NCBI GenBank assembly: GCA_030613245.1
Contig: JAUWMI010000047.1
Location: 1 to 33,464 of the forward strand
Length of the DNA: 33,464 bases
DNA from: Candidatus Sumerlaeota bacterium
Lineage (GTDB): Bacteria > Sumerlaeota > Sumerlaeia > MWCT01 > JAUWMI01
Reading direction: 5' to 3'
The notes under the pieces were generated by a model, which saw only the letters and a list, made by a program, of their open reading frames with translations, was not told the DNA's origin and ran no database searches. Shown one piece after another: positions 12,617-20,021 of the stretch. Every line of letters starts with the position of its first letter. Position 1 is the stretch's first letter. The position numbers and the translations under genes are program-made.

Positions 12617-13723
12617 TTATTGCCCTACTGAAACCAGCTTCGGAAGCAGAAACTTCCGATGCGTTGGCGGATTGTAGACGAAGAGCACCCTGCCGATGAT
12701 TTGTTTCTTTTCCACCAAGCATGCTTCCTTCCAGCCGTAGACAATAATGCCAGGCGCATTTAGACGCGGAGAAGTCCCGCCAAACCCCATAAATCCTGGT
12801 TCATGGGAATGGTGCGTAATGAGAACGAGGTACCGAGCCTCAGGCAAAGGGTCAAATGAAAAATTCTCTGCAATCTGGTCCGTGACCAAGGGGTAAAATG
12901 ATTTGTCTATAGGCTTTCCGTTTACGTAGAAAATGCCATCTTTGCGTTCCACCCTGTCGCCCGGAATGCCCATAATTCGCTCCATACTGTGTCGTTCTCT
13001 GATGAGGTAGACGTCACTGAGGACTCCACCTTTTCGCTCAATCTTGTAGCTGCCGGGATTATAGTAAACGACTTCGCCTTGCCTGGGCTTGCGAAGCCAG
13101 TACGTTACACAATCAACAATCAGCCGATCGCCTTTGCGAATTTCAGGAGCCAGGACATCTTGCGCAATATGCACGAATTTGAACAAAGGGCTAAAGAAGA
13201 ACTGCCCGAACGCAAGGAAAAGGCCGATCGCAAATAAAAGATAGCTGAACGCCGCCAGTGAATTGCGCAGCGACCATAATTGCCCATTGATACGTATCGC
13301 GGTGGCTAACCCGTCATTGTACGAATAAAGAACAAACAGGATGAACGTGCCGAGAATTAAGTTCGAGTAAGGCTTTGTGAGTGTAAGAATCGAAATGGCT
13401 GCCAGCGCACCATATGCCAGAATAAACAACCCTGCCTTTTTGTACTGGTGGTTATAGAGTTGGCCCCCACCAGGCAGGAGCGACAGCCACGCAGCCATCC
13501 ATGGGTAACGATACGGTAGATTCTCTGGAATTGGCGACCGCGCCAGACGAAGCAAGCCATCCCGCACGCGCCAGAAATGCCTCATGACAGTATCTGTGGC
13601 GCCCCAGCGAAATTTCACTGGCCGTTTGACCACCTCTTCGCAATGCTGCAGGATGGTGTCGCACCTCAGGCACCGTTCACGTTCGTCGCGATTATAGAAT
13701 TGGCAAGAGGGACAAACCTTCAA
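12617..13723 (-). CDS. Zinc-ribbon membrane protein with a catalytically dead signal-peptidase-I-like domain
   Basis: A 368-aa protein built from three parts. Residues 4-21 are a four-cysteine zinc ribbon (CPSC-x3-NRD-x4-CLRC). Residues 76-175 hold about four membrane helices beginning with LLPGGGQLYNHQYKKAG, the PGxGQ-type small membrane module. Residues 183-350 follow the S26 signal peptidase fold: APEIRKGDRLIVD (192-204), PRQGEVVYYNPG, RIMGIPGDRVERKDGIFYVNG (249-269) and IIGRVLFVY. The catalytic Ser is replaced by Val190 and the general-base Lys by Glu248; the GDNxxNSxDSR box is also absent. It is therefore unlikely to cleave leaders and may bind or scaffold instead. The only start retaining the zinc ribbon is the TTG at 13723, because an in-frame stop lies three codons upstream. 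It follows the small ORF at 13744 by 20 nt. Confidence 0.85.
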   Translation of the reverse strand: MKVCPSCQFYNRDERERCLRCDTILQHCEEVVKRPVKFRWGATDTVMRHFWRVRDGLLRLARSPIPENLPYRYPWMAAWLSLLPGGGQLYNHQYKKAGLFILAYGALAAISILTLTKPYSNLILGTFILFVLYSYNDGLATAIRINGQLWSLRNSLAAFSYLLFAIGLFLAFGQFFFSPLFKFVHIAQDVLAPEIRKGDRLIVDCVTYWLRKPRQGEVVYYNPGSYKIERKGGVLSDVYLIRERHSMERIMGIPGDRVERKDGIFYVNGKPIDKSFYPLVTDQIAENFSFDPLPEARYLVLITHHSHEPGFMGFGGTSPRLNAPGIIVYGWKEACLVEKKQIIGRVLFVYNPPTHRKFLLPKLVSVGQ

Positions 13724-13743: not shown

Positions 13744-13971
13744 CTATGCCCCGGTGAGTTTCTGCTTATCTTTGTCCTTTTCCTTCTCGCTAAGCTTCAC
13801 ACCGGATGGCGGCGCTTCGTCACCCGTGAGCACAGGCTTCACACGGACTGGCCCAATGTTCTCTTCGAACATCTGCTGGTAGTTCTGAACCGTCCGCTTG
13901 CCCAGCTCTTTCATGTCAACAATGATTTCTCCGTTCTTCTTGATAATAATCGTAAATTCTTCCTGTTCCAT
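13744..13971 (-). CDS. Small acidic/lysine-rich hypothetical protein
   Basis: A 75-aa protein starting MEQEEFTIIIKKNGEIIVDM. The first 45 residues look like a small beta-beta-alpha unit (FTIIIKKNGEIIVDM then a helix ending in NYQQMFEEN), loosely reminiscent of the DUF2997-like short proteins, but I do not claim family membership. The tail (SEKEKDKDKQKL) is charged and probably disordered. The ATG at 13971 is preceded at about 10 nt by AAGGA; a GTG at 13980 is too close to that site. Its stop lies 20 nt before the signal-peptidase-like gene, so the two are probably cotranscribed. It could be a partner or regulator of that protein. Confidence 0.65.
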   Translation of the reverse strand: MEQEEFTIIIKKNGEIIVDMKELGKRTVQNYQQMFEENIGPVRVKPVLTGDEAPPSGVKLSEKEKDKDKQKLTGA

Positions 13972-14222: not shown

Positions 14223-15158
14223 TCAGTCTTTCAGGCCTGTTCTGGCAATCCCCTGAATGAAAAACCGCTGCAGGAAAAAGAAGAGTATGATGACGGGAAT
14301 AATAGCGAATGTCGACGCTGCCATGAGAAGATGATATTTTGAGCCGGCCTCTTCAGTGAAGTTCTGGAGGCCGACCATTAACGTGCGCATGTGTGGGCTA
14401 TTTGTAACAATCAACGGCCACAATAGGGAGTTCCAGCTGGCCAGAAAGGTAAAAATTCCGCTGGTAATGAGCACCGGCTTGGAAAGCGGGAGAATAACCA
14501 TTATGAGGTAACGAAACCGCCCCGAGCCGTCAATCTGCGCAGCATCCCACAAATCATCGGGAATTGTCATGAAGAATTGCCGCATAAGAAAAATGCAGAA
14601 CACGCTGGCAAGCCAGGGAACAATCAGGGCTTGATACGTGTTAATCCAGTTGAGAGTCTGGAGAATAATGTAATTGGGTATTAAGAGAACCTGACCTGGC
14701 ACCATCATCATGGCGAGCACAAGATAGAAGAAAAGCCCCTTGCCAATGAAACGCATCTTCGCGAACGCATATGCGGCGAGAGCAGCGGTGGCTAGAGTTC
14801 CGGCTGTTGATGCAACCGCCGTCACGATGCTGACGAAAAAATAGCGTCCAAACGTCAGATCGCCCGGAGGTGCGTTCCATGCATCAAGGAAATTTTGCCA
14901 CCTCCACTCTGTGGGAATCCATGAGGGTGGAAACGCGATGGCTTCTTGCAGACTCTTGAAGGCCGTAATCGCCATCCAGTAGAATGGGAGGATCATGAAG
15001 AGACCGCCAATGACCAGCACGTGGTAGACAATCGCTGAAGTGAGTATCTGCCGCTTCTTTTGCACGATCACCTTATAGCAAACGGTCGCTATGATCGCCG
15101 CATAAATACAAACCAGTAGAATCATCAGATACCCGGAAGATGTGGAGGCTTCATTCAT
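14223..15158 (-). CDS. Carbohydrate ABC transporter permease (CUT1, MalG/LacG-like)
   Basis: A 311-aa inner-membrane permease with six or seven hydrophobic segments. The MalG-type layout is clear: PFYWMAITAFKS after the first helix, a long periplasmic loop with PTEWRWQNFLDAW, and the cytoplasmic EAA-type loop DAAQIDGSGRFRYLIMVILP that docks on the ATPase (Asp replaces the first Glu). It ends with the usual RFFIQGIARTGLKD type tail. It should pair with the permease at 15174 to import a sugar or oligosaccharide. The start is the ATG at 15158 with GAGG 10 nt upstream; a TTG at 15164 is the alternative. The 15-nt gap to the upstream permease means cotranscription. No ATPase or binding protein is in the window. 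Confidence 0.93.
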   Translation of the reverse strand: MNEASTSSGYLMILLVCIYAAIIATVCYKVIVQKKRQILTSAIVYHVLVIGGLFMILPFYWMAITAFKSLQEAIAFPPSWIPTEWRWQNFLDAWNAPPGDLTFGRYFFVSIVTAVASTAGTLATAALAAYAFAKMRFIGKGLFFYLVLAMMMVPGQVLLIPNYIILQTLNWINTYQALIVPWLASVFCIFLMRQFFMTIPDDLWDAAQIDGSGRFRYLIMVILPLSKPVLITSGIFTFLASWNSLLWPLIVTNSPHMRTLMVGLQNFTEEAGSKYHLLMAASTFAIIPVIILFFFLQRFFIQGIARTGLKD

Positions 15159-15173
15159 GCCCAACTTACCTCG

Positions 15174-16160
15174 TTACGCCTCATAGTGAACCCGGCGTCC
15201 GAGAATAACATTCTGGATAATAGTAAGAAGCATAATGATCACAAACAGAATATAGGCAATTGCCGCAGCGTAGCCCAGCAGCCAGAGCCCGCGAAATCCT
15301 TTCTCATAGAGATAGAAGACCATAGTTGATGTCGTATTGTCAGGGCCGCCCGTAGGTGTCATAATTAGAATCGGAACAAACACCTTGAAGGCATTAATCA
15401 TCGAGATAATGAGTAGAAAGAAGGTAACCGGCGACAGAAGAGGAAAGGTAATGTGGCGAAATTTCTGCAACCAGGAAGCCCCATCAATCTCAGCTGCCTC
15501 GTAATAGCTGCGGTCAATATTCTGTAACCCTGCCAGGAAGATGATCATGCAAAAGCCAATATCACGCCATACCGTGGTCAGGATAATCGAGACCATTGCC
15601 AGACTTGGTCCCGCCAGCAATGGCGAGCCAATATCAATTCCTAGTGGAGCGAGCAGCATCTCCACAATACCCCGCGGCTCGCTCAGCCAATTCAGACCGC
15701 CCAGATGCAAGTAGTTCATCAACAGGTGATTTGCCAGGCCGAATTCCCGGTGATAGAAATACTTCCAGACAATTGAAATAGCCACCCAGGTGGTCACAAA
15801 GGGAAGAAAATAGACAGTGCGAAAAATATGCGCACATTTAATCTTCGCGTTTAAGAGCATGGCAATGATTAGCGCCACAACGAGTGTGGTGGGCACACTG
15901 ACAATGACATAGTTGAATGTGTTTAAAAGGGACTTGATGAAGTATTCGTCGCGGAAAGCCCAGAGGTAATTACGCAGCCCAACAAATCTTACCATGTCCA
16001 GGGTGTCAGCACCCTTCCAGTTCGTTAACGACACATATACGGAAAGCACTACTGGGAGAAACCAGAAAACAAGAAGGATAATACCTGCAGGAGCCAGATA
16101 GGCAAAGGCTTCCAGATTTTCTTTAAGGTGTTTCTTTTTGCGGGAGGCCAAATGGTTCAA
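15174..16160 (-). CDS. Carbohydrate ABC transporter permease (CUT1, MalF/UgpA-like)
   Basis: A 328-aa partner permease. A lysine-rich N-terminus precedes helix 1 (AYLAPAGIILLVFWFLP), and LTNWKGA with FVGLRNYLWAFRD is the standard early loop of MalF/UgpA-like subunits. The EAA loop YYEAAEIDGASWLQKFRHIT is intact, followed by the late TPTGGPDNTTSTMVFYLYEK loop characteristic of CUT1 systems. It forms a heterodimer with the 14223 gene. No ATG exists near the N-terminus; the start is taken as the TTG at 16160, with AGGAGG about 13 nt upstream. The gene lies 76 bp after the PHP gene on the same strand. Substrate is unknown; the CUT1 class carries di- and oligosaccharides or glycerol phosphate. Confidence 0.93.
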   Translation of the reverse strand: MNHLASRKKKHLKENLEAFAYLAPAGIILLVFWFLPVVLSVYVSLTNWKGADTLDMVRFVGLRNYLWAFRDEYFIKSLLNTFNYVIVSVPTTLVVALIIAMLLNAKIKCAHIFRTVYFLPFVTTWVAISIVWKYFYHREFGLANHLLMNYLHLGGLNWLSEPRGIVEMLLAPLGIDIGSPLLAGPSLAMVSIILTTVWRDIGFCMIIFLAGLQNIDRSYYEAAEIDGASWLQKFRHITFPLLSPVTFFLLIISMINAFKVFVPILIMTPTGGPDNTTSTMVFYLYEKGFRGLWLLGYAAAIAYILFVIIMLLTIIQNVILGRRVHYEA

Positions 16161-16236
16161 GGAAGCTGTGTTTCCTCCTCGAGGTACACGGAATACGGCC
16201 GAACGCCAAAAGGAAAGGACTTGAAAACCATTATGA

Positions 16237-17082
16237 TCACATACGCGAGGTTGTCTGGCGGCGCAGAGCGAAAAGCTCCTCTGCCACCCAGTCAGGAACG
16301 TTACATTTGCCCATTAACACGTGTCGGTAAAACGTCCCGTGGCAGTCCGAGCCCCCCGTGATACCCATTGAGAGCTTCCGCGCCATCTTTGTATAATACG
16401 TTATCATGTAACGGTCATGACGAGGATGGTAAACTTCAATTGCCATTGCGCCCCACTCGCGATGTGCAAACAACTCAGGCTCTAGCATCATGTCTGCACG
16501 GCCGAGGTATCCTGAATGAGCTATCGCTGGAATCCCGCCTGCATCAAGAATCACTCCGTATGCTTCCTCAGGCGCCATCGCCGTAACATCTACGTATGCA
16601 GGACCCGATGAGCCAATGAATCGGTCGAATGCCTCTTGATTGCTCTGAACATAACCTTTCTTGACCATTGCTCTTGCAATGTGAGGCCGGCCCATACTGC
16701 CACTTCCTGCGATCTCCAGCACCTCGTCCATTCCCAACGGATAGCCGAGCCGGTTAATTCGTTCCACAATCCGACTCATGCGTTCTAGCACCCGGCCGCG
16801 TACCTCTTTAATGCACGCCAGTAGCCTTGGTGATGTAGGGTCAACAAAATAGCCGAGGAGATGGATTTCTTGTTCCTCGTGAGTCGCTGTCAGCTCAATG
16901 CCCGGGATAAAGGGAATGCCCAGCTGGGTGGCGCGCTGTTGCGCCTCCTCGATGCCACTCATCGTATCGTGATCTGTCAGGGCAATGCAGCTCAGCCCGA
17001 TGCGCGCGGCATAGTCAACTACTTGTGAGGGACTAAATCCACCGTCTGAAGCAATGGAATGCAAATGAAGATCAACTGCCAT
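16237..17082 (-). CDS. PHP-domain phosphoesterase (TrpH/RNase AM-like)
   Basis: A 281-aa cytoplasmic metal-dependent phosphoesterase. The PHP motifs are complete: DLHLHSIASDG (His6, His8), ALTDHDT (residues 34-40), IPGIELTA (Glu63), IHLLGYF (His74), an internal IAHSGYLGR, EVYHPRHD and the C-terminal GGSDCHG. This arrangement is that of the TrpH/YciV group, whose E. coli member degrades short 5'-phosphorylated RNA/DNA oligonucleotides, including in rRNA maturation. The size is typical. The ATG at 17082 begins immediately before the first metal-binding His pair; a GTG at 17118 is possible but has no ribosome site. It is upstream of the sugar permeases on the same strand and may lead that transcript. 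Confidence 0.92.
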   Translation of the reverse strand: MAVDLHLHSIASDGGFSPSQVVDYAARIGLSCIALTDHDTMSGIEEAQQRATQLGIPFIPGIELTATHEEQEIHLLGYFVDPTSPRLLACIKEVRGRVLERMSRIVERINRLGYPLGMDEVLEIAGSGSMGRPHIARAMVKKGYVQSNQEAFDRFIGSSGPAYVDVTAMAPEEAYGVILDAGGIPAIAHSGYLGRADMMLEPELFAHREWGAMAIEVYHPRHDRYMITYYTKMARKLSMGITGGSDCHGTFYRHVLMGKCNVPDWVAEELFALRRQTTSRM

Positions 17083-17585
17083 TACCTTCAGTCCTGTTTT
17101 TCGCTCATGGGCTGGCACCCAATCTATACGCGCTATACGACGAAAGGTGCTCCCATGCTTGTTATTACATCAAAGCAGTGCTCAATACAACACCATGCTC
17201 TGATTTAAGGCAAGGAAATTTTGCGCCAATTCGGGTGGCTATGCGCATGGTCTCAATCCGCGCACAGCGCTGGAGAAGGTTCTTAACTCTTTAGCATCAT
17301 AGTCTCTGGGTAGTAATCCAGAGAGGGAGGAATTCGGTGGAGGCTTTGCACTAGGGTGACCATACTCTTGCTAGTCTTAGCAGATTCAGGATGGCGAGGG
17401 AGATTAAGCACTTTTGTGAAAGTAAAAAGCTCAGTAATGCGCTGTCTGCCACAAGGGAAGGATTTTTTAATGGTTGTTTTACAGCCTATTCGTGCCCGGA
17501 ATTCCGTGATAGATGCCAGACAAGGTTGCGAAAAAATAGGCCCCTCCTTTATTGCTTTGGGGCTGCAAGACCTTACTTCTTGCGC
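17083..17585. other. Intergenic region of about 500 bp
   Basis: No convincing gene. Plus-strand frames here (for example from 17391) overlap the carboxypeptidase gene and lack protein-like composition. The region should hold the PHP promoter, but no consensus promoter was found. A weak terminator candidate lies at its right end (separate entry). Confidence 0.4.
17531..17563 (-). terminator. Weak terminator candidate for the carboxypeptidase gene
   Basis: On the minus strand GCCCC and GGGGC (17563-17559 and 17544-17540) enclose a 14-nt loop and are followed after a few bases by six T. It lies 23 nt after the carboxypeptidase stop. The stem is only 5 bp, so the call is tentative. Confidence 0.35.
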
Positions 17586-18451: not shown

Positions 18452-19120
18452 TCATTCATTGATAATCAATCCGCCGCTTTGTGAGCGATCAAAACGCGGG
18501 ATAGCAGTGCCAAAATTCGATGGAGCACCAACGCGCACCACGTCTCCATAGCTTACGCTACCATTCGTTGGGTCGTAATCCACACCAACTTCATTTACCG
18601 GCATGCCTTTTACCATAAAGGTAACGCCAACCCAAGCTCCGCCGAACGCAGCCATCTGGTCAGGTCCAACACCTGCCAGACGCCATACTGCCCCACTTGT
18701 AGCCCCTCGGCCCTGAGGGATTGATGCATGGTCATCCCAGTAATCGAATGTATCATAAAAGCGCGGAAAGTTTGGATCTGTGGACGCACTGATCAGATTG
18801 AATCCATCTTTGGGAATCGAAGTCATGTAGGATATAGGTGTTGTAAGAATGAGGAACCGATTGCTCGCCTTTCCTGAGGAACCTGTAGTGGGGTATTTTA
18901 TTGGCCCCAGAGGGCAAACTCTGGCGGGAATATAGTGGTTATGATCGGTCATATACGCCTCAAGCGCAAGTGTGATAGTGCGCATATCTGCCACACAACG
19001 GGCGTACTTCGACCGCACTTGCGCCTCCAGAAAATTCGGAATCGCAATAGCCGCCAATATGGCTATGATCGCAACAACGATAAGAAGCTCAATTAATGTA
19101 AAGCCACGCTTCGGTACCAT
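18452..19120 (-). CDS. Type II secretion/type IV-like pseudopilin (prepilin N-terminal methylation domain)
   Basis: A 222-aa protein with a short leader MVPKRG, a prepilin peptidase cleavage point before Phe7, and the conserved FTLIELLIVVAIIAILAAIA helix (Glu at +5 of the mature protein). IPNFLEAQVRSKYARCVADM then continues the pilin alpha-helix, and ALEAYMTDHNHYI begins the globular domain. The C-terminal 130 residues are beta-rich with Gly/Asn/Tyr, resembling pseudopilins that candidate-phylum and planctomycete-like bacteria carry in many copies. Its role is in a periplasmic pilus or secretion pseudopilus; no secretin, ATPase or prepilin peptidase is nearby. The ATG at 19120 has a GGGGGGTGAG purine-rich site upstream; the open frame extends to 19240, but that part is not leader-like. 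Confidence 0.93.
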   Translation of the reverse strand: MVPKRGFTLIELLIVVAIIAILAAIAIPNFLEAQVRSKYARCVADMRTITLALEAYMTDHNHYIPARVCPLGPIKYPTTGSSGKASNRFLILTTPISYMTSIPKDGFNLISASTDPNFPRFYDTFDYWDDHASIPQGRGATSGAVWRLAGVGPDQMAAFGGAWVGVTFMVKGMPVNEVGVDYDPTNGSVSYGDVVRVGAPSNFGTAIPRFDRSQSGGLIINE

Positions 19121-19181
19121 AATTCTCTCACCCCCCTTCTGACCCCATGATTCTGTTATGGACACTGGGCACATCGCAAGG

Positions 19182-20021
19182 CTAATAGTACACGGCTGCC
19201 AAGTATCCAACGACGTAGCTATCATTAACAGGATTCGCATCGTAAGAGTTTATACGATGAAGAATCTTGATGTTTGTTGCCCCGAGTGCTTTTGCCGTGA
19301 GCATGGTCACAGCCATAGGGCCAGCTCCACATGCCATGTATTTCTCTTGCTCAATTTCTTCCATGAAGACGTTGACATCGAACTTTTCTAGAGCGGTCGC
19401 CAGTTGAGCGTCGCGCGCTTTACATTCATCATATGACTCCCCATGATAAAGATCTGAGCTGGCAACCACCACGGTTCGCTTCATGTTGCTTGCAGAAAGA
19501 ACCTTGACCAGCGTGGCTGCGACGTCCCTGCAATTTGCCAGGCTCTGATCTGCCAGCACGATTGGAACAAGGAGAAACTTGTCCAGAATCATTTGTAAAA
19601 ACGGTAGCTGCACCTCCAGCGAATGCTCGTCCTTATGGGTGCGGCTATGGAAACCAAACAAACTACTTGTTTGGCGCAATGCGCTTACTGTCTCCTGATC
19701 AATTGGAACAGTTCCCAATGGGGTCTCATAGGCCTCGCCGTCATAGATAGAAACCCCAGGAAATGCACAACGGTGGCTCGGCGCAATGACAACAATGCGC
19801 TCATAGCCCTTGTCCTGAAGTTGCTTGTAGGCGTATGCAGCGGTTTGGCCGGAAAAGACGTATCCCGCATGTGGTACAACCAGACCGATAGGATGCGTCA
19901 CGGATGTTTCAATATGGGCCTTATCGCAAAAATTCTGAATCATCTGGCATAGGTCCGTCGGACTCGCAGGATAAAATGATCCCGCATGTGCTGCTTTTCG
20001 AATTCCCTTTCCAGACGCCAT
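19182..20021 (-). CDS. amrB: AmmeMemoRadiSam system protein B (MEMO1 family)
   Basis: A 279-aa protein of the MEMO family, structurally related to extradiol-type dioxygenases. Family blocks: RKAAHAGSFYPA (residues 8-19), VVPHAGYVFSGQTAAYAY (48-65, His51), IAPSHRCAFPG (79-89, His83), YETPLGTVPID, EHSLEVQLPFLQ (132-143), SSDLYHGESYDE and CGAGPMAVTM (Cys231). His51, His83 and Cys231 match the metal/active-site triad described for human MEMO1. In prokaryotes it usually accompanies an AMMECR1 protein and a radical SAM enzyme; neither is in this window. The ATG at 20021 is preceded by AGAAGG at 8 nt. The open frame to 20186 is rejected as an N-terminal extension. It lies 61 bp upstream of the pseudopilin gene. 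Confidence 0.94.
   Translation of the reverse strand: MASGKGIRKAAHAGSFYPASPTDLCQMIQNFCDKAHIETSVTHPIGLVVPHAGYVFSGQTAAYAYKQLQDKGYERIVVIAPSHRCAFPGVSIYDGEAYETPLGTVPIDQETVSALRQTSSLFGFHSRTHKDEHSLEVQLPFLQMILDKFLLVPIVLADQSLANCRDVAATLVKVLSASNMKRTVVVASSDLYHGESYDECKARDAQLATALEKFDVNVFMEEIEQEKYMACGAGPMAVTMLTAKALGATNIKILHRINSYDANPVNDSYVVGYLAAVYY

What the first reader, a model, noticed from the sequence alone, without database searches (positions are those of the whole stretch)
12617..13723. Signal-peptidase fold without Ser/Lys dyad, fused to a zinc ribbon
The S26 framework is easy to follow (APxxxxGD, GIPGDRV, YVNG, IIGR), yet the nucleophile Ser is Val190, the general-base Lys is Glu248, and the third conserved box is gone. 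A zinc ribbon and a PGxGQ membrane module are added. A conserved pseudo-peptidase could bind leader peptides, regulate the true LepB or serve another role.
Basis: partly seen in the sequence, partly recalled or inferred. Interest (0 to 1): 0.65.

Follow-up and report, generated by a model that had tools for sequence, protein, structure and literature searches.

The report
Dead signal-peptidase subunit beside DUF2997
This gene encodes a membrane protein whose outer domain is a signal peptidase that has lost its catalytic residues across most of a bacterial phylum, and it appears to belong to an undescribed protein machine that in distant bacteria is encoded next to the motor that retracts type IV pili.

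Summary
Window 12620-13723(-) encodes an N-terminal CxxC...CxxC ribbon, a PGxGQ hairpin, three membrane helices and a type I signal-peptidase (S26) ectodomain with Val at the nucleophile, Glu at the general base, and no GDNR box. It is not isolated decay. At least 24 of 40 Sumerlaeota genomes encode it, the catalytic Lys is Glu/Gln/Gly in every one, S26-part dN/dS is 0.14-0.17, and intact signal peptidases coexist. AlphaFold2 plus Foldseek retrieve SpsB and the known dead homologue SipA. The gene sits 20 bp downstream of a DUF2997-type gene. In five unrelated non-Sumerlaeota families the same protein lies in one operon with a Ycf46-like AAA+ ATPase, DUF1257 (Ycf35-like), DUF2997, a TPR protein and, in four of them, the pilus-retraction ATPase PilT. 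In Sumerlaeota these genes are scattered but co-occur (DUF1257: 26/0/2/12, Fisher 1.6e-8). I read it as the non-catalytic membrane subunit of an AAA+/type-IV-pilus-linked complex. That membership is well supported. What the dead ectodomain binds is inferred, by analogy with SipA. Val is not conserved; a LepB-regulator role has no direct support.

The parts
12620..13723 (-). CDS of the catalytically dead S26 membrane protein (368 aa, TTG start; stop codon 12617-12619)
13661..13714 (-). N-terminal CxxC-x10-CxxC zinc ribbon, residues 4-21; the four Cys are invariant in the 27-row family alignment
13448..13504 (-). PGxGQ-YN membrane hairpin, residues 74-92 (G87, Y90, N91 invariant; Q93 of the following stretch too)
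13193..13444 (-). Three predicted membrane helices, residues 94-113, 120-145, 152-177; an odd number, so the ribbon is predicted cytosolic and the S26 domain outside
   Evidence: topology is inference
12671..13192 (-). S26 (type I signal peptidase) ectodomain, residues 178-351
13154..13156 (-). [quoted passage not shown]
12980..12982 (-). [quoted passage not shown]
13744..13971 (-). Upstream partner, 75 aa, homologous to DUF2997; 20 bp between its stop and the pseudo-S26 start

Best explanation
The protein is the non-catalytic membrane subunit of a conserved, undescribed multi-protein system: Ycf46-like AAA+ ATPase, DUF1257 (Ycf35-like), DUF2997, TPR protein, this protein, and often PilT. Its zinc ribbon is predicted to lie in the cytosol and its membrane helices anchor it. 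Its S26 ectodomain lacks the Ser-Lys dyad throughout the family and is kept by purifying selection. Shown by sequence: the fold, the missing dyad and GDNR box, purifying selection, the DUF2997 pairing, the shared operon in five non-Sumerlaeota families, and co-occurrence across Sumerlaeota. Inferred: the cytosolic ribbon and the DUF2997/AAA+ side couple ATP use to the membrane, and the dead ectodomain acts as a non-cleaving docking surface for an exported peptide or (pseudo)pilin in type IV pilus function, as SipA is thought to do for sortase pili.
For: Family in at least 24 of 40 phylum genomes, while signal peptidase matches occur in 40/40. Lys absent from every pseudo-family row, all intact relatives keep S/K. 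Pseudo and active rows split by one branch, support 93/90. S26-part dN/dS 0.14-0.17, and no Ser/Thr/Cys/His/Lys column reaches 70% conservation in the ectodomain. DUF2997 relation: Pfam hits E=6e-13 and 5e-14 in outside operons, hhalign 95.8% for the window-type partner. Operons: G300 and G311 (AAA-DUF1257-DUF2997-pseudoS26-TPR-PilT), G167 (AAA-DUF1257-TPR-DUF2997-pseudoS26), G257 and G339 (found with a DUF1257 profile, not with S26). Co-occurrence within Sumerlaeota: DUF1257 p=1.6e-8, DUF2997 p=1.3e-6, AAA p=6e-5; TPR in 27/40, nearly the same set. One vote per family: DUF1257 9/0/0/6, p=2e-4. SipA precedent: PMC4049620.
Against: In Sumerlaeota the genes are dispersed and no PilT lies beside the window gene; the pilus link comes from other bacteria and from second-copy operons in two Sumerlaeota genomes. 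G167 lacks PilT in its operon. Residues around the former active site are not conserved across the family, so a shared peptide ligand is not supported. Two operon copies (G027, G016) carry the ribbon/membrane part with no S26 domain, so the ectodomain is dispensable there. No physical interaction was tested.
Confidence: 0.6

Rival explanations
1. The S26 ectodomain is only a structural spacer or assembly surface; the ribbon plus membrane hairpin is the working part, and no peptide is bound.
For: Second-copy operons in G027 and G016 keep ribbon + PGxGH-type hairpin + helices without an S26 domain. Outside-phylum ectodomains are very divergent (four rows with branch lengths of about 2-3). Conserved S26 columns are mainly Gly/Pro/Asp structural positions.
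Against: In close pairs the S26 part is under purifying selection as strong as the rest (dN/dS 0.14-0.17) and the fold is kept even in G257.
Confidence: 0.25
2. It binds signal peptides or regulates the intact LepB.
For: Same fold as LepB, intact LepB genes in the same genome; in several relatives a secG gene lies upstream.
Against: No linkage to lepB was seen; all 40 phylum genomes have signal peptidase matches but about a third lack this protein. The constant partners are DUF2997, DUF1257, AAA+ and TPR.
Confidence: 0.1
3. It is still a peptidase using relocated catalytic residues.
For: Some members have Ser or Thr at the nucleophile column.
Against: No Ser/Thr/Cys/His/Lys column conserved at 70% or more in the ectodomain; the general-base column is E, Q or G in Sumerlaeota; the GDNR box is gone in all.
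Confidence: 0.04
4. Isolated decay or a sequencing/assembly error.
For: The source is a fragmented genome of 97 contigs.
Against: Same state in many independent genomes, open frames, purifying selection.
Confidence: 0.01

Closest known systems
Streptococcus pyogenes SipA (PDB 4n31, 4k8w)
   Same: S26 fold with the Ser-Lys dyad replaced (Asp/Gly in SipA), membrane-anchored, tied to pili (PMC4049620)
   Different: SipA serves sortase-built pili in a Gram-positive and is preceded by one transmembrane helix; this protein has a zinc ribbon, a PGxGQ hairpin and three helices, and its neighbours are DUF2997, DUF1257, AAA+, TPR and PilT
Type I signal peptidase (LepB/SpsB, MEROPS S26)
   Same: Fold, GD and PGD motifs, YVNG motif, membrane anchoring
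   Different: Lacks Ser, Lys and the GDNR box; extra ribbon and membrane module
Intact S26 enzymes fused to a PGxGQ-like module (G061 L040, G303 L155)
   Same: Membrane module of the same kind followed by S26
   Different: S/K dyad and GDNR intact, no zinc ribbon
Cyanobacterial duf2997-ycf35(DUF1257)-fed7 cluster, and Ycf46 AAA+ ATPases
   Same: DUF2997 and DUF1257 partners of the outside operons belong to these families by Pfam; a duf2997-ycf35 cluster is reported in cyanobacteria (PMC4284462)
   Different: The reported cyanobacterial cluster contains a ferredoxin and no ribbon/S26 protein, TPR or PilT. That the AAA+ protein is of the Ycf46 type rests on recalled family knowledge plus a Pfam AAA match

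Membership tests
Type I signal peptidase (S26) | S26 fold | tested here: met
   Pfam/NCBIfam matches and Foldseek
Type I signal peptidase (S26) | Catalytic Ser in box B | tested here: not met
   Val in window protein, variable in family
Type I signal peptidase (S26) | Catalytic Lys in box D | tested here: not met
   Glu here; Glu/Gln/Gly in Sumerlaeota, never Lys in any pseudo row
Type I signal peptidase (S26) | Box E GDNR motif | tested here: not met
   Absent in all pseudo rows
SipA-type dead signal peptidase homologue | S26 fold without the dyad | tested here: met
SipA-type dead signal peptidase homologue | Genetic link to pilus assembly | tested here: inconclusive
   PilT is in the operon of relatives but not near the window gene; no sortase-pilus context was seen
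SipA-type dead signal peptidase homologue | Retained peptide-binding cleft | tested here: inconclusive
AAA+/DUF1257/DUF2997 system subunit | Encoded with, or co-inherited with, AAA+, DUF1257 and DUF2997 | tested here: met
AAA+/DUF1257/DUF2997 system subunit | Physical complex formation | not testable with these tools
   needs co-purification or two-hybrid
DUF2997 (partner gene 13744-13971) | Pfam PF11211 above gathering score | tested here: not met
   The window protein itself has no PF11211 match; outside-phylum counterparts pass; linked to them by hhalign, probability 95.8%

The most novel reading that the evidence does not exclude
A previously undescribed bacterial machine couples a Ycf46-type AAA+ ATPase with DUF1257, DUF2997 and TPR adaptors to a membrane subunit whose dead signal-peptidase ectodomain binds exported pilins or peptides, and it controls type IV pilus retraction through PilT. 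The cyanobacterial and plastid ycf35 and ycf46 genes would be remnants of the same kind of machine.
Probability: 0.25. Interest if true: 0.85.

Novelty: new variant of a known kind. Interest (0 to 1): 0.62.

Why it matters
The dead signal-peptidase homologue with a known role that these searches turned up is SipA of streptococcal pili. This would be a second, architecturally different case, spread over a phylum and at least five other families. It would also give the uncharacterised DUF1257 (Ycf35), DUF2997 and Ycf46-type families a membrane partner and a testable link to type IV pili.

Tried and rejected
Isolated decay was rejected. Relocated catalysis was rejected because no candidate residue is conserved. 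Genome neighbourhood in Sumerlaeota beyond DUF2997 is variable: ABC permeases and PHP in the window's order, Hsp20-Lon and SecG in family f6; I judged these local and not part of the system. A phylum search around G257 added no further operon. Literature searches for DUF1257, DUF2997, Ycf46 and Ycf35 gave no functional account of this gene set, within an open-access library only. One Pfam call failed on a too-short input and was repeated.

Full report
Observation. The ORF at 12617-13723(-) is 368 aa with a TTG start. It matches Peptidase_S26 (E=3.6e-13) and signal peptidase I TIGR02227 above its cut-off. In an alignment with 26 intact signal peptidases of the same phylum, Val190 sits on the catalytic Ser, Glu248 on the catalytic Lys, and the GDNR box is missing. 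The N-terminal four-Cys ribbon and PGxGQ hairpin are real, and their key residues are invariant in 27 homologues.

Fold. AlphaFold2 on the 27-row alignment gives mean pLDDT 87.9. Foldseek's best matches are S. aureus SpsB (E=6e-6) and S. pyogenes SipA (E=7.6e-5, TM-score 0.61 on the target). A distant relative from G257 was modelled separately (pLDDT 74) and retrieves the same structures.

Conservation. Homologues over most of their length occur in 24 of 40 Sumerlaeota genomes at least, one of them (G001) broken at a contig end, with fragments in two more. The phylum is identified from L016, the BRC1 bacterium ADurb.Bin183 contig, whose counterpart G002 lies in the same order as the window's genome. 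The Ser column varies widely; the Lys column is E, Q or G and never K. dN/dS in the S26 part is 0.14-0.17 in the three pairs where dS is measurable; in three more distant pairs dS is saturated. Pseudo and active sequences are separated by one branch, support 93/90, though four outside rows have long branches and their placement is unsure. Signal peptidase matches occur in all 40 genomes, and the window's own genome has two intact enzymes plus a second dead paralogue.

Partner gene. A 75-aa gene lies 20 bp upstream. Its relatives are the next gene upstream of the pseudo-S26 gene in nine further Sumerlaeota loci, and one gene away in a tenth (G006). It has no Pfam match itself, but the genes at the same place in G300 and G311 are DUF2997 (E=6e-13, 5e-14), and profile comparison links the two groups (95.8%).

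Operon in other bacteria. In G300 and G311 the order is AAA+, DUF1257, DUF2997, pseudo-S26, TPR, PilT; G167 has AAA+, DUF1257, TPR, DUF2997, pseudo-S26. A search with the DUF1257 profile, which does not use S26, then found G257 and G339, whose operons also hold TPR, DUF2997, PilT and a ribbon/membrane/dead-S26 protein. In G339 the AAA+ gene is seen only as a start at the contig end. A radical SAM gene is nearby in three of them. Two Sumerlaeota genomes carry a second operon of this form in which the ribbon/membrane protein lacks the S26 domain.

Co-occurrence. Across 40 Sumerlaeota genomes the pseudo-S26 gene matches DUF1257 26/0/2/12 (both, pseudo-S26 only, partner only, neither; Fisher 1.6e-8), DUF2997 24/2/2/12 (1.3e-6) and AAA+ 24/2/4/10 (6e-5). 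Relatedness inflates these values; one vote per family, by majority, gives p=2e-4 for DUF1257 and 0.011 for AAA+. In the window's genome AAA+ is on C41 and DUF1257 with TPR on C26.

Interpretation. The evidence supports a non-catalytic membrane subunit of a multi-protein system. The pilus link rests on PilT in six operons (G300, where it reads as two ORFs, G311, G257, G339, and the second copies in G027 and G016) and on the SipA precedent (PMC4049620); Sumerlaeota are reported to have type IV pilus-dependent twitching (PMC8092238). What the ectodomain binds, and whether it binds anything, is not shown.

Noticed in passing
G000:C59, L014 3620-4495(-): The genome's second intact signal peptidase carries an insert of roughly 60 aa after box B containing DYDDDGDEDLVL, weakly FG-GAP-like (E=0.06); other phylum members carry inserts at the same place.
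   Followed up: partly
G000:C86:89781-90965 (L012 4782-5966): A second dead S26 paralogue with Thr/Glu at the catalytic positions, not next to a DUF2997 gene.
   Followed up: partly
L116, L118, L119, L120, L121, L122: In family f6 the pseudo-S26 gene is followed within a few genes by Hsp20 and Lon, and in four of these six loci preceded by SecG.
   Followed up: no
L156 10034-10933(-), L256 4179-5297(+), L257 4114-5412(+): A radical SAM gene accompanies the AAA+/DUF1257/DUF2997 operon in three outside genomes.
   Followed up: partly
window 14223-17118(-): Two ABC permeases and a PHP-domain gene upstream of the pair; the same order occurs in other members of the window's order.
   Followed up: no
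window 18452-19240(-): A protein with an N-terminal prepilin methylation motif.
   Followed up: no
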